From contig JAIUOW010000013.1 of the NCBI GenBank assembly GCA_020161775.1, forward strand, positions 1-64,000: 64,000 nucleotides of DNA, in the 5' to 3' direction. The position numbers and the translations under genes were made by a program. The notes beneath the pieces are model-generated. The model saw nothing but the letters and a program-made list of their open reading frames with translations, was not told the DNA's origin and did not search any database. This document shows positions 1 through 40,052 of this stretch, piece after piece. How positions within the stretch are numbered: the first letter of the stretch is position 1; every line of letters begins with the position of its first letter. The DNA comes from Pseudomonadota bacterium (lineage in GTDB: Bacteria; Pseudomonadota; Gammaproteobacteria; Burkholderiales; Burkholderiaceae_C).

Positions 1-549
<549 letters not shown>

Positions 550-15994: not shown

Positions 15995-16666
15995 ATGGGC
16001 AATCTCTACCTTGTGCGTCACGGCCAGGCCTCGTTTGGCGAAGACGACTACGACAAACTCAGCGCGCTGGGCCACCAGCAGAGCATGCGCCTGGGTGAAT
16101 ACTTCAAGGCCAGGGGCATTGCGTTCGACGCGGTGGTCACCGGCACGCTGCGCCGCCACGCCGAGACGTTTGCCGGCATCGCCCAGGGCCTGGGCCTGCA
16201 GGCCGAGGCGCTGCAGTGGCCGGGCCTGAATGAATACGACAGCGAAGCGGTCATTGCCACCATCCACCCGCACAAGCTGGAAAAGCCCACCTCGCCCGAG
16301 ATGTACCGCCACCATTTCCGGCTGCTGCGTGACGGCCTGAACCAGTGGATGGCCGGCGTGGTCAGCCCGCGCGGCATGCCCAGCTACAGCGATTTCGTGA
16401 GCGGCATCACCAGCGCGCTGGACCATGTGCGCGCGCAACACCATGGCCAGAACGTGCTGCTGGTGTCCAGCGGCGGGCCAATCTCCACCGCCGTGGGCCA
16501 TGTGCTGGGCACCAGCGCGGAAGCCACCATCGAGCTGAACCTGCGCATCCGCAACAGCAGCGTGACCGAGTTTGCATTCACGCCCAAGCGGCACATGCTG
16601 GTCACCTACAACACGTTGCCGCACCTGGACGAGGCGCGGTACAAGGACTGGATCACCTACGCCTGA
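15995..16666 (+). CDS. Histidine phosphatase family protein
   Basis: This 223-residue protein has the phosphoglycerate-mutase-like fold: the phosphohistidine motif LVRHGQASF at the N-terminus, and a later VSSGGPIST that replaces the usual SHG motif. Conserved arginines follow GTLRRH. The second catalytic histidine motif is therefore atypical. It is followed by a convergent FAD oxidoreductase, overlapping by ten bases. Cellular role unknown. Confidence 0.85.
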   Translation: MGNLYLVRHGQASFGEDDYDKLSALGHQQSMRLGEYFKARGIAFDAVVTGTLRRHAETFAGIAQGLGLQAEALQWPGLNEYDSEAVIATIHPHKLEKPTSPEMYRHHFRLLRDGLNQWMAGVVSPRGMPSYSDFVSGITSALDHVRAQHHGQNVLLVSSGGPISTAVGHVLGTSAEATIELNLRIRNSSVTEFAFTPKRHMLVTYNTLPHLDEARYKDWITYA

Positions 16667-18021
16667 GCGGGTGCCCCAAGCCCCAGCCAGGCGCCGTCGG
16701 CCTGCAGCTGCGTTTGCAGAGCTGCCACGTCCAGCTCGCGCGGCGCGGTGCCGGCCTTCAGCGCCAGTGCTGCCGCCGTGCCCGCGGCCTGCCCCATCAC
16801 AAAACACGCGCCGGACACCCGCGCGGCCGACTGGCCCAGGTGCGTCATGGACGCACAGCGCCCGGCCACCAGCAGGTTGTGCATGCCCTGGGGCAGCAGC
16901 ATGCGGTAGGGCAGGTGGTTGTAGCCCCGGCAGTTCGGGATGTCCTGGAAGCGGAACGACACATCGCCCGCCACATGCTCCTCGATCATCCAGCCGTTCA
17001 CGCCGATGTTGTCGTCAAAGCTCACGCACTGCAGCACGTCGTCGCCGGTGAGCTGGTAGTCACCGACCACGCGGCGCGTCTCGCGCACGCCCACCTGCGG
17101 CGCAATCTCCAGGATGTAGGCGTTCTCGAACCCCGGCGCCGATTCGCGCAGGAACTCAAAGAAATCCACGATCTGGCGCCGGCCCTCGACCTCGGCCGCG
17201 CTGAGCTGCAACGCGTCCGTGCCATCCACCGGGCCGCCGCTGGCGTTGGCCAGCTGCGTCACGTTGGCGCGCCATTCGGCCGGGTTCTTCTGCGGGCGGA
17301 TGATGGGCGACTTGCGCGGGAACCTTCGGCCTTTGGCCTCGGCCTCCTGCATCAGCCGGCCAAAATGGTTCCAGGCGTCACCGGCACGCACCGGGTCCAC
17401 GCCGTTCACGCGGAACATGGTGGACGGGTACATCATCCCGTGGCCGTCCGCGCCTTTTTCAAACGGCGCGCCGGCATGCGCGGCCAGGTCGCCGTCGCCC
17501 GAACAGTCGATGAACATGCGCGCCAGCACGGCCTGCCGGCCTGAGCGCGTCTCGATCAGCAGCGCGCCGATGTCGCCCGGCGCGTTCATCACCACGCCCA
17601 CGGCCTGCGCATGGAACAGCAGCTGCGCGCCGCTGGAAAGCACCAGCTCGTCCGCAGCTACCTTAAAGGCTGCTGTGTCGTAAGCCTGCGCGGAAATCTT
17701 GCCGCCAAACAGCGAATGCGGCGCGTTCAGGCCGCCCAGCTGCGCCATGCGCGCCAGCAGCTCGCCGGCCACGCCATGCACCACCTGCTGCACCGTGCCA
17801 TGCACATTGGCATGCAGGCCGCAGAAGTTGGTGACGCCCGCCGCCGTGCCCATGCCGCCCAGAAAACCGTAACGCTCCACCAGCAGCGTGCGCTGCCCCA
17901 GCCGCGCCGCGGCCGCGGCGGCCGTGATGCCGGCGGGCCCGCCACCCAGCACCACCACGTCAAACTCACCCAGCACCGGCGTCTGGCGCGCGGGCTCGGT
18001 CAGGCAGGAGGGGACTGTCAT
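16657..18021 (-). CDS. FAD-dependent oxidoreductase
   Basis: This 454-residue flavoprotein begins with a clear dinucleotide-binding motif (VVVLGGGPAGITAA) and the FAD_oxidored-type ERYGFLGGMGT stretch. A later FIDCSGDGDLAA and a C-terminal AGRCASMTHLGQSAARV complete the FAD site. Family members oxidise diverse small molecules, and no substrate is evident. It may share a transcript with the small protein at 18026, whose stop lies four bases upstream of its start. Confidence 0.85.
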   Translation of the reverse strand: MTVPSCLTEPARQTPVLGEFDVVVLGGGPAGITAAAAAARLGQRTLLVERYGFLGGMGTAAGVTNFCGLHANVHGTVQQVVHGVAGELLARMAQLGGLNAPHSLFGGKISAQAYDTAAFKVAADELVLSSGAQLLFHAQAVGVVMNAPGDIGALLIETRSGRQAVLARMFIDCSGDGDLAAHAGAPFEKGADGHGMMYPSTMFRVNGVDPVRAGDAWNHFGRLMQEAEAKGRRFPRKSPIIRPQKNPAEWRANVTQLANASGGPVDGTDALQLSAAEVEGRRQIVDFFEFLRESAPGFENAYILEIAPQVGVRETRRVVGDYQLTGDDVLQCVSFDDNIGVNGWMIEEHVAGDVSFRFQDIPNCRGYNHLPYRMLLPQGMHNLLVAGRCASMTHLGQSAARVSGACFVMGQAAGTAAALALKAGTAPRELDVAALQTQLQADGAWLGLGAPAQA

Positions 18022-18025
18022 GGGC

Positions 18026-18262
18026 TCAGGCCTGTGGCTTGCTGTCCATCACCACCGACCAGTTGCCCCAGGCCGCGTCGGTGGCATGGCGCGCCGCCAT
18101 CCAGTGGTGGAACTCCGGCGATTTCAATGCGTCTGCCACATCGCCCGCGGCATGCGCCCGCGCATGGACGGCATCGAAGCGGTCTTCGGCCTCGCGTTCT
18201 TGCGCCTGCTTTTGTTCAGCAGCTGCCTCGGCAGCCGTAATTTCTTCGGACCAATCGCTCAT
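18026..18262 (-). CDS. Small hypothetical protein
   Basis: This 78-residue acidic protein (MSDWSEEITAAEAAAEQKQAQ) is predicted to be mainly helical, with a Trp/His-rich C-terminal part (FHHWMAARHATDAAWGNW). I do not recognise a domain. Support for a real gene comes from its codon use, its fit just upstream of the FAD oxidoreductase on the same strand, and the divergent promoter gap to the RGS gene. Function unknown. Confidence 0.6.
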   Translation of the reverse strand: MSDWSEEITAAEAAAEQKQAQEREAEDRFDAVHARAHAAGDVADALKSPEFHHWMAARHATDAAWGNWSVVMDSKPQA

Positions 18263-18372
18263 GAATACCCTTTGAATAGGCCCCGAGTATGACGCCTCTG
18301 TGCCGCAGCGCCGCCGGGCAGCTGTTACGATCCCCAGCGCCTATCCCGCCCCCACACAAGGAGTAGCGACGC

Positions 18373-18897
18373 ATGACCACCGGCAACAACAGAAGCCGCA
18401 GCAATGCCGTGAACTGGACCAGCGACCCCCGCCTCGCGCCGGTGCAGCAGGGCCGCAGCCGCGGGCACGTCGTGACCAGCAGGCCGATGCCCTCGCTTGA
18501 GAAGCTGATGGAAGACGGGTTTTTCTTCGCGGCGTTCCTGAGCTTTGCCACCCAGGAGTTCAGCGGCGAGAACCTCGAGTTCTGGCGGGACGTGCAGCAG
18601 TTCCGCAAGCTGGGCTTCCCGACCGTGCTCAACGCGCGGGTGATCTACAGCAAGTATGTGGCGGCCGGCTCGCAGCACGAAATCAACATCCGCAACGCAA
18701 CGCGCGACGACATCAAGCGCAAGCTGGGCCAGCTGCAGGGCATCTATGAAAGCAACTTCTCGGACCGCCACGCACTGGCGGGTGTTTTTGACGACGCCAT
18801 GGTTGAAAACATGATGACCCTGTCCGATACCTACAGCCGCTTCATTTTCTCTGACGGCTACGCGCGCTGCATGAAGCAGCTGGGCTACACCGTCTGA
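18373..18897 (+). CDS. RGS (regulator of G-protein signalling) domain protein
   Basis: This 174-residue protein has a nearly complete RGS domain from about residue 39 to 170. The most conserved RGS block, EFSxEN(L/I)xFW, appears as EFSGENLEFW. INIRNATRDDI matches the loop before helix 6, and DTYSRFIFSDGY matches the final YPRF-type motif. There is no signal peptide or membrane segment, and about 38 basic residues precede the domain. RGS domains are known as GTPase activators of eukaryotic G-alpha subunits, which bacteria lack, so the partner is unknown. A GGAG ribosome site lies just upstream. The DUF3237 gene follows 11 bases later. Confidence 0.88.
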   Translation: MTTGNNRSRSNAVNWTSDPRLAPVQQGRSRGHVVTSRPMPSLEKLMEDGFFFAAFLSFATQEFSGENLEFWRDVQQFRKLGFPTVLNARVIYSKYVAAGSQHEINIRNATRDDIKRKLGQLQGIYESNFSDRHALAGVFDDAMVENMMTLSDTYSRFIFSDGYARCMKQLGYTV

Positions 18898-18908
18898 CAC
18901 CCCGCCCG

Positions 18909-19373
18909 ATGACCCTGCCCGACCCCACCCTGCGTTTCTTTGCCGACCTGTCTGTTGAAGTTGGCACACCCATCGAGATCGGCCACACCGGCAAGGGCCG
19001 CCGCCGCTTCATCCCCATCACCGGCGGCCAGGCCTCGGGTAACGGCTGGACGGCCCGCGTGCTGCCCGGCGGCGCCGACTACCAGCTGGTCAGCAGCGAC
19101 ACCACGGCCGAGCTGGAGGCGCACTATGTGCTGGAGACCGACGCCGGCGACCTGATCTATGTGCGCAACGAGGCCTTGCGTTCGGCCCCACCCGATGTCA
19201 CGGCGCGGCTGATCCGCGGCGAGCCGGTGGACCCTGCCCTGGTGTACTTCCGCTGCGCGCCACGCCTGGAGGCGTCGGCGCCATCGCTGGCCTGGCTGCG
19301 TGAACGGCTGTTCGTGGGCACCGGCGCGCGCCACCCTGACCGCGTCGTGATGCGGTTTTTCGAGCTGGGCTGA
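18909..19373 (+). CDS. DUF3237 (UPF0311) family protein
   Basis: This 154-residue protein matches the DUF3237 family: an N-terminal strand run (LRFFADLSVEVGTPIEIG), GRRRFIPITGG, and a C-terminal DRVVMRFFELG. It is a small beta-barrel-like protein without known activity. It starts 11 bases after the RGS gene, so the two are probably co-transcribed. It converges on the sensor kinase gene across seven bases. Confidence 0.82.
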   Translation: MTLPDPTLRFFADLSVEVGTPIEIGHTGKGRRRFIPITGGQASGNGWTARVLPGGADYQLVSSDTTAELEAHYVLETDAGDLIYVRNEALRSAPPDVTARLIRGEPVDPALVYFRCAPRLEASAPSLAWLRERLFVGTGARHPDRVVMRFFELG

Positions 19374-19380
19374 CGCGGCT

Positions 19381-20727
19381 TCAGGCCGGCGGGAACTCCA
19401 GCCGGTAGCAGCTGGCAAAACCTTCCGGCGCCGCGGCCTGGCTGAAGGTGGCGCCGTGGATCGCGGCGATTTTTTCCACCACGCGGTGGCCTAGTCCCAG
19501 GCCCAGGGCACGCACGCGCGGCCCGTCGCCCGCGCCCTGCACAACGGCCGCCGCCACGCCCTGCCCGGCGTCGTCGCACACCTGCACCCAGCGGCCCGCC
19601 GGGTCCAGCTGCACCTCCACCCGCGTGCCGCGGGGCGTATGGCCCAGCGCGTTTTCCACCAGGTTGCGCAGGGCCAGGCCCAGCAGCAACGGGTGGCCTG
19701 TCACGCTGAACGGCCCCGGGCAGGCCAGCGACAGCTCATGCCCGCTGGCGTGCGCCGCCTGGGCAAATTCGCCCACCACCTCGCGCGCCAGATCGCCCAG
19801 GTCCAGCACCTGCGCGGCTTCGGCCAGCTCGGTGCGGCTGGCGCGGGCCAGCGCCAGCAGGTCGGCCAGCACCTGCCCGGCGCGCAGGGCATCGCGTTCC
19901 AGCCGGGCCAGCATGTCATCGCGCGCGGCGCCCGCGGGCTCGTCGCGCAGCGCACGCGCCTGCAGCGTGATGGCCGCCAGCGGCGTGCGCAACTCGTGCG
20001 CCAGCTCGTTGGCCAGCTCGCGCTCACGCGTCAGCGTGGCGTGGTAGCGCGCGGCCAGCGTGTTGATGGAGTCCACCACCGCGCGGAATTCTTCCTCGGG
20101 ATGGGCATGGCGCAAGGGCTCGCGCTGGCGGATGTCCAGCGCATGCACGTCGCGCGACAGGTCGTACAGCGGCCGCAGTCCCTTGCGGATGGCCAGCCCC
20201 AGCACCAGCGCGATGACCGGCAGCAGCCACAGGCCGGGCTGCGCAATCTGCGCGGCAATGTCCTCGGCCAGGTCGTCGCGCTCGCGCTCGCTCAGCAGCA
20301 CCATGACCTTGCGCTGGTGGCCTTCGCCGTCCCAGCGCGAGAAGGCGCGCCACGGCACGGCCGGGTTGCCCAGGTGCAGCGTCTCGAACCCCTCGGACGG
20401 CGCGAACGGCGGCGTCGGTGCGTCGCCGGTGCGCGTGATCAGGTCGCCCGTGGCGTTCCACACCACCACGCTCATGGACTGCTGGTAGTCGTGGCTCTTG
20501 AGCGAGCCCGGGCCGGCCAGCGCGGCGGGATCGCCACGCCCGGCAAAGCGGCCTTCGCGCTCGGCCAGCAACAGGCTGGCCACGCTGGCCAGGTGGCCGT
20601 CGGTGAGTTCGTCGGCCTCGTGGCGGCCTGTCATGTAGCCCACCACCACAAAGCTCACCCACACCGCCAGCAGCGCCCCCAGCGTCCAGGCCAGCAGGTG
20701 CCGGGTGAGCGAACGGCGGGCCGTCAT
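19381..20727 (-). CDS. Sensor histidine kinase (QseC/PmrB-like)
   Basis: This 448-residue inner-membrane kinase has two membrane helices (about 10-31 and 166-181) enclosing a short periplasmic sensor. The H-box ELAHELRTPLA places the phosphorylated histidine at residue 244. The N box (LRNLVENALGHT) and G boxes follow. The gene overlaps the response regulator by ATGA. PmrB and QseC share this architecture; the PmrA-type box and the neighbouring eptA favour a PmrB-like role in sensing envelope stress or cations. Confidence 0.87.
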   Translation of the reverse strand: MTARRSLTRHLLAWTLGALLAVWVSFVVVGYMTGRHEADELTDGHLASVASLLLAEREGRFAGRGDPAALAGPGSLKSHDYQQSMSVVVWNATGDLITRTGDAPTPPFAPSEGFETLHLGNPAVPWRAFSRWDGEGHQRKVMVLLSERERDDLAEDIAAQIAQPGLWLLPVIALVLGLAIRKGLRPLYDLSRDVHALDIRQREPLRHAHPEEEFRAVVDSINTLAARYHATLTRERELANELAHELRTPLAAITLQARALRDEPAGAARDDMLARLERDALRAGQVLADLLALARASRTELAEAAQVLDLGDLAREVVGEFAQAAHASGHELSLACPGPFSVTGHPLLLGLALRNLVENALGHTPRGTRVEVQLDPAGRWVQVCDDAGQGVAAAVVQGAGDGPRVRALGLGLGHRVVEKIAAIHGATFSQAAAPEGFASCYRLEFPPA

Positions 20728-24906: not shown

Positions 24907-25350
24907 TCAATACGTCTTGTAGGGCAGGAATTTGCCCGATAGAACAACATTCACCCGATCCCCCTTGGGGTCGGCCTGCCGCTGGATGTCCATGCTGAAG
25001 TCAATGGCGCTCATGATGCCGTCGCCAAACTCTTCATGGATCAGTTCCTTGATCGTCGTGCCGTAGACGCTGACGATTTCATACCAGCGGTAAATCAGCG
25101 GGTCGGTGGGCACGGGCGTGGGCAGCGAGCCCTTGTATGGCACGACCTGCAGCCATTTCTGCTCTTCGGCGTTCAAGCCAAATATCTTGCCGACCACCTT
25201 GGCCTGCGCGGCGGTGGCGGTCATCTGGCCCAGGCACAGCGCGGTGGTCCATTCCTTGGACTCGCCGACCTTTTTGGCAACGTCTTCCCATTTGATGCCC
25301 TTGGACACCTTGGTGCTGATGATTTTTTCGGTGACTTCAAGACGGTTCAT
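24907..25350 (-). CDS. cynS: Cyanate hydratase (cyanase)
   Basis: This 147-residue protein is a full-length cyanase: an N-terminal helical POU-like domain (residues 1-85) and a C-terminal catalytic domain with YRWYEIVSVYG (the catalytic arginine and glutamate) and a later IMSAIDFSM (the serine). It converts cyanate and bicarbonate to ammonia and carbon dioxide. A strong AAAGGAG ribosome site precedes the start. It is the last gene of a run that begins with the ABC transporter genes at 28537. Confidence 0.97.
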   Translation of the reverse strand: MNRLEVTEKIISTKVSKGIKWEDVAKKVGESKEWTTALCLGQMTATAAQAKVVGKIFGLNAEEQKWLQVVPYKGSLPTPVPTDPLIYRWYEIVSVYGTTIKELIHEEFGDGIMSAIDFSMDIQRQADPKGDRVNVVLSGKFLPYKTY

Positions 25351-36806: not shown

Positions 36807-37580
36807 TTGCCCCGCCCCCTCCTGAGCCCCATCCCCTTGAACCCCGCTTTTGCCAGCACCCCTCTGGTCCGCCTGCTGTCGCAGTGGACGCCCGCCGCCC
36901 CGCCCGGGGCCGGCGCGGGCCTGGGCGAGCAGTTGGCGCAGTGGGTCAGCGCCTTTGACGCGATCAGCCTGCACACGGCGTTGCGCGCCATCCAGGCCAC
37001 GGGGGCGGCACCCGCGCGCAGGCCGGCCACAGGCGCGGGCGCCGCGCCACCGGCGGCGCTGGCCCAGGACTTTGCCCAGGTGCGCGCCCAGCAGGCGCGC
37101 GCCATCGCCCAGGCGCCGGCCCTGCCCAATGAATTCACCTATGCGCCCTACCGGCGCCGCCACCTGGAGCTGCAGCGCCAGATGGGGCTGGCGGTGGATG
37201 CGCTGCGCCAGCGCGTGCGCGATGCCCTGGCCTGCGCCAGCCCGGCGCTGCAGCAGCTGGCGGCGCTGGACGCCGCCATGGACAAGGTGCTGGCCCCGCG
37301 CGAACAGGCGCTGCTGCCCGTGGCGGTAGCCGTGCTGGAGCGGCGCTTTGGCCAGCTGCAGGCCGCGCACCTGAAGGCGCTGGCCGACGCGCGCCAGGCC
37401 CTGCCGGAGGGCAGCGAGGCCACGGAAGACGACCCCCTGCTCTGGCGCCGCCCCGGTGCCTGGCTGCACGGCTTTGAACAGGACTGGCACCAGGCGCTGG
37501 GCGCCGAGCTGGACTTGCGGCTTGAACCTGTTGCCGGGCTGATTGAAGCCACCGGCATTGAACTGAACCATTCACCCTGA
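36807..37580 (+). CDS. DUF3348 family protein
   Basis: This protein, up to 257 residues, is soluble and helical, with LVRLLSQWTP near the N-terminus, FTYAPYRRRHLELQRQM in the middle and WLHGFEQDWHQALGAELDLRLEPV at the end, as in the DUF3348 family of Burkholderiales. The start is uncertain: TTG codons at 36807 and 36837 are both possible and no ATG fits. It is the first gene of a four-gene operon with DUF802, OmpA-like and DUF2894 genes. Confidence 0.8.
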   Translation: MPRPLLSPIPLNPAFASTPLVRLLSQWTPAAPPGAGAGLGEQLAQWVSAFDAISLHTALRAIQATGAAPARRPATGAGAAPPAALAQDFAQVRAQQARAIAQAPALPNEFTYAPYRRRHLELQRQMGLAVDALRQRVRDALACASPALQQLAALDAAMDKVLAPREQALLPVAVAVLERRFGQLQAAHLKALADARQALPEGSEATEDDPLLWRRPGAWLHGFEQDWHQALGAELDLRLEPVAGLIEATGIELNHSP

Positions 37581-37587
37581 TTTGCCC

Positions 37588-39396
37588 ATGACCGCACGTT
37601 TTTTCTGGATTGCATTTGCCACCGGCCTGGCCGCCATTGCCTGGGTAGGCGTGGGCTTTGTGGGCACGCATGCGCTGGCCCTGGCCATGACGGTGGCCAT
37701 TGCCGCTGCCTACCTGCTGGGCGCGTACGAGCTGCGCCAGTACCGCGCCGACACCGCAGCACTGGGCCAGGCGCTGGCCGAGGTGCCGGCCCAGGTGCCG
37801 GCGGCGGGTGCCGCGCCGCTGGGCGACTGGCTGGCGCAGGTGCCTGCCGGGCTGCGCACCGCCGTGCGCCTGCGCATTGAAGCTGGCAGCGGCGCGCTGC
37901 CGGGGCCCGCGCTCACGCCGTATCTGGTGGGGCTGCTGGTGATGCTGGGCATGTTGGGCACCTTCCTGGGCATGGTGGTCACCTTCCGCGGCGCGGTGTT
38001 TGCGCTGGAGGGCTCCACCGACCTGCAGGCCATCCGCGCCGCGCTGGCCGAGCCGATCCGCGGGCTGGGGCTGTCGTTTGGCACCTCGGTGGCGGGCGTG
38101 GCCGCTTCGGCCATGCTGGGGCTGATGTCGGCCCTGTGCCGGCGCGAACGCCTGGCCGTGGCGCGCGCGCTGGACGCCGGCGTGGCCACGGTGCTGCGGC
38201 CGTATTCGCCCGCGCACCAGCGCGAAGAGGCGCTGCGCGCCGCGCAGGCCCAGGCCGTGGCGCTGCCCCAGTTGGTGGACCGGCTGGACGCGCTGATGGC
38301 GAACATCGAGCAGCGCAGCCAGCAGCTGGACGAACGCCTGCTGGCCGCGCAGGCGCGATTCCAGCAGGACGCCGCGGCCTCCTACACCACGCTGGCGCGC
38401 GACGTGGGCACGGCGCTGCAGGACAGCCTGGCCGCCGGCGCGCGCGCGGCGGGCGAAAGCATCCGCCCGGTGATGGAAGCCACCATGGCGCAGATCGCGC
38501 AGGACCAGGCTCGCCAGGAGGCGCAGCGCCTGCAGGCGTGGTCGCAGCAGCTGCAGGGCCTGGCCGACGGCGTAGGCACGCAGGGCCAGCAGGCCGCCGA
38601 ACGCATGGACGCGCTGACGCAGCAGATGGCCAGCCGCATGGGCGACATGGTCCAGGCCACGGCGGACCGCATGGAGGCCCTGGCCCAGCAGACCACCGCC
38701 AGCGTGGCCGCCATGGCGCAGCAGGTCACCGCCGGCATGGAGGCGCTGGCCCACAACAACACCACCAGCCACCAGGCGCTGGCCAGCACCTGGCAGGCAC
38801 AGCTGGAAGCCCTGCGCGCTGAAGAGCAGCGCCGGGGCGACGCTGCCGTGGCCCGCCTGGGCGAGCTGCAGGCCGGCGTGGCGCAGCACCTGGCCACGCT
38901 GGGCGCGGCGCTGGAAGCGCCGCTGGCGCGGCTGCTGCAGACTGCGTCCGAGGTGCCGCAGGCTGCGGCCGGCGTGCTGGCCCAGCTGCGCCAGGAGATG
39001 GCCCAGCTGTCCGCCCAGGAAAACGCCACGCTGGCCGAGCGCACGGCGCTGGTGCAGCGGCTGGCCGCGCTGATGCAAACGGTGGAGGAAGCCGCGCGCC
39101 AGGCCACGCAGATGGCCGCGCTGGCCCAGGCCAACGCGGTGGAGCTGTCCAGCTGGGGCGATGCCTTCGGCCAGGGCGTGGAGCTGTTCCATGCCGGCAA
39201 CGAAAAACTGGCCACGGCCCTGCAACAGGTGGAAGCCGCCATTTCGCGCTCCACCGCGCGCAGCGACGAGCAGCTGGCCTATTACGTGGCGCAGGCCCGC
39301 GAGGTGATCGACCTGAGCATCAGCGCGCAGCACGGCGTGATCGAGAAGCTGCGCACGCTGGGCAGCGTGCGCTCCGAGCCGGCGGAGGCCGCCTGA
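37588..39396 (+). CDS. DUF802 protein: MotA/TolQ/ZorA-like membrane protein with long tail
   Basis: This 602-residue protein has two N-terminal helices (about 5-26 and 29-47) and two more (112-134 and 160-184). The second pair, GLLVMLGMLGTFLGMVVTF and GLSFGTSVAGVAASAMLGL, resembles the pore-lining helices 3 and 4 of the MotA/TolQ/ExbB proton-channel family. A cytosolic tail of about 400 residues follows, rich in Ala, Gln and Glu with repeated DUF802 segments, predicted as a long coiled coil. ZorA of Zorya systems shares this layout. An ATG at 37588 is the better start. The stop overlaps the OmpA-like gene by one base. Confidence 0.83.
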   Translation: MTARFFWIAFATGLAAIAWVGVGFVGTHALALAMTVAIAAAYLLGAYELRQYRADTAALGQALAEVPAQVPAAGAAPLGDWLAQVPAGLRTAVRLRIEAGSGALPGPALTPYLVGLLVMLGMLGTFLGMVVTFRGAVFALEGSTDLQAIRAALAEPIRGLGLSFGTSVAGVAASAMLGLMSALCRRERLAVARALDAGVATVLRPYSPAHQREEALRAAQAQAVALPQLVDRLDALMANIEQRSQQLDERLLAAQARFQQDAAASYTTLARDVGTALQDSLAAGARAAGESIRPVMEATMAQIAQDQARQEAQRLQAWSQQLQGLADGVGTQGQQAAERMDALTQQMASRMGDMVQATADRMEALAQQTTASVAAMAQQVTAGMEALAHNNTTSHQALASTWQAQLEALRAEEQRRGDAAVARLGELQAGVAQHLATLGAALEAPLARLLQTASEVPQAAAGVLAQLRQEMAQLSAQENATLAERTALVQRLAALMQTVEEAARQATQMAALAQANAVELSSWGDAFGQGVELFHAGNEKLATALQQVEAAISRSTARSDEQLAYYVAQAREVIDLSISAQHGVIEKLRTLGSVRSEPAEAA

Positions 39397-40052
39397 TGTC
39401 AGCGCTGGAAGACGCCGTGGAAGATGGCACGGGCGACACCACCGCCCCGGTGTGGACGGCGTTTGGCGACCTGATGACCGGCCTGCTGGGCGCGTTTGTG
39501 CTGGTGCTGATGGGCGTGCTGGTGGTGCAGATGGACCTGGTGGCCAACCTGAATGCCGAGATCGAAAAGCGCCGCGTGGAAGAGCGCCGCCGCATCGCGC
39601 TGGAAAAGGCGCTGGCCGTGCCGCTGGCCTCGGGCCGCGTGACGCTGGCCAACGGGCGCATCGGCATCAGCGGCAGCGTGCTGTTTGCCTTCAGCTCGGC
39701 CGAGCTGCGGCCCGAAGGCGTGCAGCTGCTGCGCAGCCTGGTGCACCCGCTGCGCGTGTACACCGCCGAGCGCGGCGAGGTGCTGATGGTCAGTGGCTTT
39801 ACCGACGACCGCGGCGTGTCCGGGCGCAACCAGAAGTTTGAAGACAACCTGGAGCTGTCGGCCCAGCGTGCGCTGACTGTCACGCGCGCGCTGATCGCCG
39901 AGGGCATGCCGCCCGCCCAGGTGTTTGCCGCCGCCTTTGGCGCCCAGCAGCCGGTGGCGTCCAACGCCGACGAGGCCGGCCGCGCGCAGAACCGCCGCGT
40001 GGAGATGGCGCCGGTGCCGCGCGCGGGCGCGCCCCTGGTGCCCGCGCGATGA
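39396..40052 (+). CDS. OmpA/MotB-like protein (ZorB-like)
   Basis: This 218-residue protein has a short cytosolic N-terminus, one membrane helix (about 22-45) beginning FGDLMTGLLGAFVLVLM, and a periplasmic OmpA/MotB peptidoglycan-binding domain (about 85-205; VSGFTDDRG, NLELSAQRAL, NRRVEM). The aspartate at the start of the helix corresponds to the proton-carrying Asp of MotB, TolR and ZorB. It is translationally linked to the MotA-like gene upstream and overlaps the DUF2894 gene by ATGA. A proton-driven stator-like complex is inferred. Confidence 0.87.
   Translation: MSALEDAVEDGTGDTTAPVWTAFGDLMTGLLGAFVLVLMGVLVVQMDLVANLNAEIEKRRVEERRRIALEKALAVPLASGRVTLANGRIGISGSVLFAFSSAELRPEGVQLLRSLVHPLRVYTAERGEVLMVSGFTDDRGVSGRNQKFEDNLELSAQRALTVTRALIAEGMPPAQVFAAAFGAQQPVASNADEAGRAQNRRVEMAPVPRAGAPLVPAR

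What the first reader, a model, noticed from the sequence alone, without database searches (positions are those of the whole stretch)
18373..18897. A bacterial protein with a canonical RGS domain
The 174-residue protein contains EFSGENLEFW, INIRNATRDDI and DTYSRFIFSDGY, in the order and spacing of RGS domains that activate GTP hydrolysis by eukaryotic G-alpha subunits. Bacteria have no heterotrimeric G proteins, so its partner must be something else, for example a bacterial small GTPase, a structural interaction, or a host G protein. To my knowledge bacterial RGS proteins are rare and uncharacterised. The gene has a good ribosome site and codon use like its neighbours, and is followed 11 bases later by a DUF3237 gene.
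Basis: partly seen in the sequence, partly recalled or inferred. Interest (0 to 1): 0.85.

Follow-up and report, generated by a model that had tools for sequence, protein, structure and literature searches.

The report
Lone eukaryotic-type RGS domain in bacterium
A proteobacterium carries a complete gene for a domain that eukaryotes use to switch off G proteins, although no such G protein was found in its genome; it looks like a rare gene taken from a eukaryote, and what it acts on is open.

Summary
Window 18373-18897 (+) is an intact 174-codon ORF with a ribosome site 9 bases upstream. Residues 41-165 match Pfam RGS PF00615 almost end to end (E 2.6e-16, 60.5 bits, cut-off 23.9). PDB sequence matches are RGS proteins (best RGS5, 7.4e-11). 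Main G-alpha-contact residues are kept (their role is recalled from RGS4). The gene lies in a 144-kb bacterial contig, with codon use like its neighbours. It is very rare: PF00615 hit only this genome in overlapping draws of 299, 349, 398 and 369 genomes, and the protein query only it in 399. Two genome-contig scans confirmed no relative. Profile searches of the genome found no G-alpha, only MnmE and IF-2 with the Arf profile, and no HrcV. The DUF3237 neighbour is not conserved with RGS. Fold prediction failed for want of homologues, so the nine-helix bundle is inferred. Best reading: horizontal acquisition from a eukaryote with the G-alpha-binding surface retained. The true partner is unknown; a foreign eukaryotic G-alpha is slightly favoured.

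The parts
18358..18363 (+). ribosome-binding site AAGGAG, 9 bases before the ATG
   Evidence: read from the sequence
18373..18897 (+). RGS-domain gene, 174 aa, stand-alone
   Evidence: PF00615 E 2.6e-16; PDB best RGS5 2crp 7.4e-11
18373..18492 (+). N-terminal 40 residues: basic (computed pI 12.0), no Pfam family; looks disordered and without a signal peptide by eye
   Evidence: disorder and signal peptide judged by eye only
18493..18867 (+). RGS domain, residues 41-165
18556..18585 (+). EFSGENLEFW (residues 62-71), the FSxEN loop with S64, E66, N67
   Evidence: invariant columns; G-alpha-contact role recalled from RGS4
18685..18687 (+). Asn105, aligned to the conserved Asn (N128 of RGS4, recalled) that reaches the G-alpha active site
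   Evidence: alignments; role recalled
18826..18861 (+). DTYSRFIFSDGY (residues 152-163); D152 and R156 align to the DSYPRF motif of GAIP
   Evidence: GAIP alignment (weak on its own, E 0.072)
18909..19373 (+). DUF3237 gene, 11 bases downstream; neighbour, not a conserved partner
   Evidence: PF11578 E 1.2e-44
18026..18262 (-). 78-aa divergent small ORF, no family; shares the 110-base intergenic region with RGS
16657..18021 (-). FAD-dependent oxidoreductase (PF12831); close homologues in six relatives lie at loci without RGS

Best explanation
A single-domain RGS protein encoded in the genome of a bacterium of the Burkholderiales (order inferred from plasmid DNA matches), acquired by horizontal transfer from an unidentified eukaryote. 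It has its own ribosome site and follows a 110-base divergent intergenic region. Its RGS domain keeps the residues by which RGS proteins dock on the switch regions of G-alpha and hold them in the hydrolysis-ready state. The most likely activity is therefore binding, and GTPase activation, of a eukaryotic-type G-alpha. As none was found in the bacterium's genome, the target would be the G-alpha of a protist or other eukaryote that it meets. Shown: family match, bacterial location, intact ORF, rarity in the genomes searched, no G-alpha by profile. Inferred: fold, transfer, G-alpha binding. Not shown: expression, release from the cell, target.
For: Full-length PF00615 match, 60.5 bits. Best PDB hits are RGS5, RGS3, RGS4 and RGS16, 32-38% identical over about 80 residues. 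S64, E66, N67, F70, W71, N105 and T110 are invariant in that alignment; D152, Y154, R156 and F157 align with GAIP. The gene lies in a 144,275-base contig of a genome scored 100% complete with 0% contamination. GC3 is 0.88 and codon adaptation 0.689, against 0.615-0.788 for the 13 neighbours that made up the reference (the 78-aa ORF scored 0.530). Only G000 matched PF00615 in overlapping draws of 299, 349, 398 and 369 genomes and the protein query in 399. Relatives keep DUF3237 or the FAD oxidoreductase without RGS nearby. G-alpha: best match E 0.338, 11.5 bits, cut-off 48.8.
Against: No delivery route shown: no signal peptide by eye, and the only HrcV-profile match is a shortened FlhA; T4SS, T6SS and other routes were not searched. 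The promoter scan found no promoter-like site in the intergenic region upstream (its one site lies inside the RGS ORF), and a terminator-like site lies inside the ORF at 18765-18781; these are consensus matches only. Contact residues would also persist after a recent transfer without function. No relative exists to test selection. Donor phylogeny could not be made. The host-like GC3 may come from a GC-rich donor rather than long residence; overall GC (0.617) and GC at codon positions 1 and 2 are the lowest of the 15 genes compared.
Confidence: 0.4

Rival explanations
1. A eukaryote-derived RGS domain repurposed inside the bacterium: it binds a bacterial protein (a GTPase or another protein) as an interaction module.
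For: No G-alpha and no HrcV-type gene found in the genome; intact ORF with a ribosome site and host-like codon use; an added basic 40-residue tail.
Against: G-alpha contact positions are kept although a new partner should not need them all. The Arf profile found only MnmE and IF-2; other GTPases were not surveyed. No conserved neighbour.
Confidence: 0.3
2. A recent, functionally idle acquisition that has not yet decayed.
For: Found in one genome only, in a genus with one genome held. Lowest overall GC of the 15 genes compared (0.617). No conserved context. No promoter-like site upstream in a simple scan.
Against: Intact ORF with a good ribosome site; GC3 and codon use already match the host, which takes time unless the donor was GC-rich.
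Confidence: 0.22
3. Assembly contamination or a chance ORF.
For: Rarity of the family in the genomes searched.
Against: Continuous contig with bacterial genes on both sides, no intron, bacterial ribosome site, host-like codon use; E 2.6e-16.
Confidence: 0.03

Closest known systems
Animal RGS proteins of the R4 type (RGS5, RGS3, RGS4, RGS16; the class name is recalled)
   Same: RGS domain over nearly its whole length, FSxENLEFW loop, E[IV]N[IL]..TR loop.
   Different: 32-38% identical over about 80 residues; about 13 extra residues before the VFDDA helix (against GAIP); encoded by a bacterium in which no G-alpha was found; tail unlike the amphipathic helix recalled for R4 proteins.
GAIP / RGS19 (1cmz)
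   Same: Best PDB match of the C-terminal half, FDDA and D-Y-RF in register.
   Different: Weak on its own (E 0.072), with a 13-residue insertion in the bacterial protein.
EhRGS-RhoGEF of Entamoeba (4gou; organism recalled)
   Same: A protist RGS domain with a detectable match (E 0.022).
   Different: Named as an RGS-RhoGEF fusion, 518 residues; far weaker match than the animal RGS domains.
Bacterial proteins that act on host heterotrimeric G proteins, e.g. SseI (PMC6107295; listing and start of abstract) and Pasteurella toxin (PMC9800868; listing and start of abstract; its G-alpha target is recalled)
   Same: Bacterial proteins that modulate host G-alpha, SseI by deamidation of Gi according to its title.
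   Different: Enzymes, not RGS domains (SseI by its title, the toxin by recall); release from the cell and a host target are not shown for the protein here.

Membership tests
RGS domain family (PF00615) | Sequence match to the curated profile above the gathering score | tested here: met
   60.5 bits against 23.9, positions 1-116 of 117
RGS domain family (PF00615) | Conserved FSxEN..FW loop, Asn before the TR motif, D.Y.RF motif (list recalled) | tested here: met
   S64 E66 N67 F70 W71 N105 T110 invariant; D152 Y154 R156 F157
RGS domain family (PF00615) | Nine-helix RGS bundle | tested here: inconclusive
   AlphaFold2 without homologues: mean pLDDT 42.2 and 48.2, seven helices each; Foldseek best E 1.9 and 2.9, none an RGS domain among the rows listed
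RGS domain family (PF00615) | GTPase activation of a G-alpha subunit | not testable with these tools
   needs biochemistry
Heterotrimeric G-protein signalling system | G-alpha encoded in the same genome | tested here: not met
   PF00503 best 11.5 bits against cut-off 48.8
Type III secreted effector | A non-flagellar type III export gene (HrcV) in the genome | tested here: not met
   the one match, 386 bits against 692, is a shortened FlhA next to FlhB
RGS protein with an MglA/Arf-like bacterial partner | An Arf-like small GTPase in the genome | tested here: not met
   the two PF00025 matches are MnmE and IF-2; other small-GTPase profiles were not run

The most novel reading that the evidence does not exclude
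A betaproteobacterium captured a eukaryotic RGS domain and uses it as a GTPase-activating protein against the G-alpha of a protist predator or host, shutting off its chemotaxis or feeding signals.
Probability: 0.25. Interest if true: 0.82.

Novelty: new variant of a known kind. Interest (0 to 1): 0.55.

Why it matters
RGS domains are taken as a mark of eukaryotic heterotrimeric G-protein signalling. A stand-alone bacterial copy that keeps the G-alpha-contact surface is a compact, directly testable case of either a bacterial protein that modulates eukaryotic G proteins or a eukaryotic regulatory fold put to a new bacterial use.

Tried and rejected
DUF3237 as a functional partner: rejected. DUF3237 was found in 13 of 40 genomes (G000 included). 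tblastn of the RGS protein against the 18 loci from the other genomes (1.5-kb flanks) gave one chance match, E 0.15. In G014 and G020 a LuxR-type regulator and a TctC receptor stand next to DUF3237, in G012 both lie within 4 kb, and in G022 a TctC receptor is next to it.

Conserved locus through the FAD oxidoreductase: the homologues at 58-68% identity in six relatives lie in stretches of 14-16 kb without RGS or DUF3237. Mobile-element boundaries: ARAGORN found no tRNA in the window. In 16500-19500 the longest repeats were a 34-base direct pair at 71% and a 25-base inverted pair at 72%; one perfect 15-base inverted pair (18308-18322 and 19061-19075) brackets the RGS ORF but its right arm is inside DUF3237; taken as chance. 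A Comamonas odontotermitis plasmid shares parts of the block up to a threonine dehydratase by annotation, and nothing like RGS follows there. A distant DNA search of 17500-20000 in plasmids matched 14 records; none of the 10 listed covers the RGS stretch.

Fold prediction: two single-sequence AlphaFold2 models too poor to use; Foldseek found nothing. Plasmid, phage and viral collections: no relative confirmed. NCBIfam and PHROGs: no family. Donor phylogeny: not possible, since no eukaryotic sequence collection besides PDB chains was at hand.

Literature: ten counted searches. No title in their listings is about bacterial RGS proteins. I saw passages only of PMC4608122, PMC9283941 and PMC3718340; none of the passages shown reports a bacterial RGS protein. 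The paper I think most likely to treat them (Anantharaman et al. 2011, Gene 475:63, known here from a reference list) is not held and was not read, so earlier reports cannot be excluded.

Full report
The gene. Window 18373-18897 (+) encodes 174 residues without interruption. AAGGAG lies at 18358-18363, nine bases before the ATG. The protein has a basic 40-residue tail (computed pI 12.0) and then one RGS domain. Pfam PF00615 matches residues 41-165 over profile positions 1-116 of 117, E 2.6e-16, 60.5 bits against a cut-off of 23.9; it was the only family listed at E up to 10. The first half of the domain alone scores 37.3 bits; the second half alone gives no Pfam match. The second half is thus supported by about 23 added bits and by a weak, in-register PDB match to GAIP (E 0.072). 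NCBIfam and PHROGs list no family for it.

Relation to known RGS domains. In the PDB, 34 distinct sequences match at E up to 0.01, and all 34 are named as RGS proteins, GAIP or CG5036; the best is RGS5 at 7.4e-11. Axin and EhRGS-RhoGEF follow far lower (0.0097 and 0.022). In an alignment with fragments of RGS3, 4, 5 and 16, identity is 32-38% and the invariant positions include S64, E66, N67, F70, W71, N105 and T110. From recall of the RGS4-Gi complex, these include the S, E and N of the FSxEN loop and the Asn that reaches the G-alpha active site. D152 and R156 correspond to the Asp and Arg of GAIP's DSYPRF. By eye and recall, M148 and T153 stand where RGS4 has Leu and Ser. The G-alpha-binding face thus appears largely kept, with about 13 residues inserted before the VFDDA helix.

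Fold. Two AlphaFold2 runs on the sequence alone gave mean pLDDT 42.2 and 48.2. Foldseek against the PDB gave best E-values of 1.9 and 2.9.

Bacterial, not contaminant. The window is the first 64 kb of a 144,275-base contig in a genome of 4.36 Mb, scored 100% complete and 0% contaminated. The ten plasmid records listed for the first 25 kb are from Comamonas, Ideonella, Variovorax, Mitsuaria, Cupriavidus, Caballeronia and Paraburkholderia, which points to the Burkholderiales. The flanking genes are ordinary: histidine phosphatase, FAD oxidoreductase, DUF3237, a two-component pair. RGS has GC3 0.88 and codon adaptation 0.689 to its neighbours; the 13 reference neighbours score 0.615-0.788 and a 78-aa small ORF 0.530. 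Its overall GC, 0.617, is the lowest of the 15 genes compared. This fits an ameliorated foreign gene or a GC-rich donor; the two were not separated. A simple scan found no promoter-like site in the 110 bases upstream, and a terminator-like site inside the ORF at 18765-18781; both are weak hints against strong expression.

Distribution. With PF00615 only the window's genome matched: 1 of 299 in the family, 1 of 1 in the genus (one genome held), 1 of 349 in the order, 1 of 398 in the phylum, 1 of 369 in the class (the draws overlap), and 0 of 14 control genomes. With the protein itself, 1 of 399 in the family. In genome contigs (84,980 species) a scan with six exact peptides gave 22 stretches, none confirmed; a scan with E[FY]S[EGS]EN[LIV]xFW gave one stretch, not confirmed. 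The latter needs an exact motif and can miss divergent domains, and the window's own record may be left out. Plasmids and phages gave no match, viral contigs no confirmed relative. Phyla other than the window's own were examined only through those two scans and the control genomes.

Context in relatives. G014 has the aminotransferase, PhzF and histidine phosphatase genes in the same order, and DUF3237 3.1 kb further on. Between them lie a PilZ-like gene (named by eye), a sigma-54 activator and a LuxR-type regulator, and a TctC receptor follows DUF3237. G020 has the LuxR regulator and the TctC receptor next to DUF3237, G012 within 4 kb. In the window the stretch between histidine phosphatase and DUF3237 holds the FAD oxidoreductase, a 78-aa ORF and RGS. 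RGS is thus no conserved partner of DUF3237.

Possible partners and delivery. No G-alpha was found: best PF00503 match 11.5 bits, cut-off 48.8. PF00025 finds two proteins, identified as MnmE and IF-2. HrcV: one match, 386 bits against 692, which NCBIfam scores higher as FlhA (435 bits, itself below the FlhA cut-off of 772), covering profile positions 3-278 of 678, directly after FlhB. Other secretion systems were not searched. So neither an internal G-alpha nor a type III route is in evidence.

Judgement. That this is a genuine bacterial RGS-domain gene is nearly certain. Horizontal acquisition from a eukaryote is very likely, inferred from the distribution. Its function is open. I favour G-alpha binding on a foreign eukaryotic target (0.4) over internal reuse (0.3) and idleness (0.22). 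Bacterial RGS domains may have been noted before: the paper I think most likely to do so is not held, and the ten searches named in Tried and rejected listed no title about them.

Noticed in passing
L061 1381-2568 (G000 contig C1, about 322-323 kb): The flhA ORF of the window's genome covers only profile positions 3-278 of 678 and ends in a tail of about 84 residues that the FlhA profile does not match, just after flhB; flagellar assembly may be lost unless another copy exists.
   Followed up: partly
window 18026-18262 (-): A 78-aa small ORF without a family, divergent from the RGS gene, with GC3 0.71, the lowest of the 15 genes compared; no relative at E 0.01 in the nine stretches of relatives searched.
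   Followed up: partly
window 1-549 (-): The contig starts inside a 16S rRNA gene (RF00177, 498 bits), so the window begins at an assembly break in an rRNA gene.
   Followed up: no
window 24907-25350 (-): A cyanate lyase gene (PF02560), with an ABC-transporter-like ORF beside it (by eye).
   Followed up: no
window 36807-40049 (+): A DUF3348 gene, a 604-aa protein without a family above its cut-off, and an OmpA-family protein in a row; may be a cell-envelope cluster.
   Followed up: no
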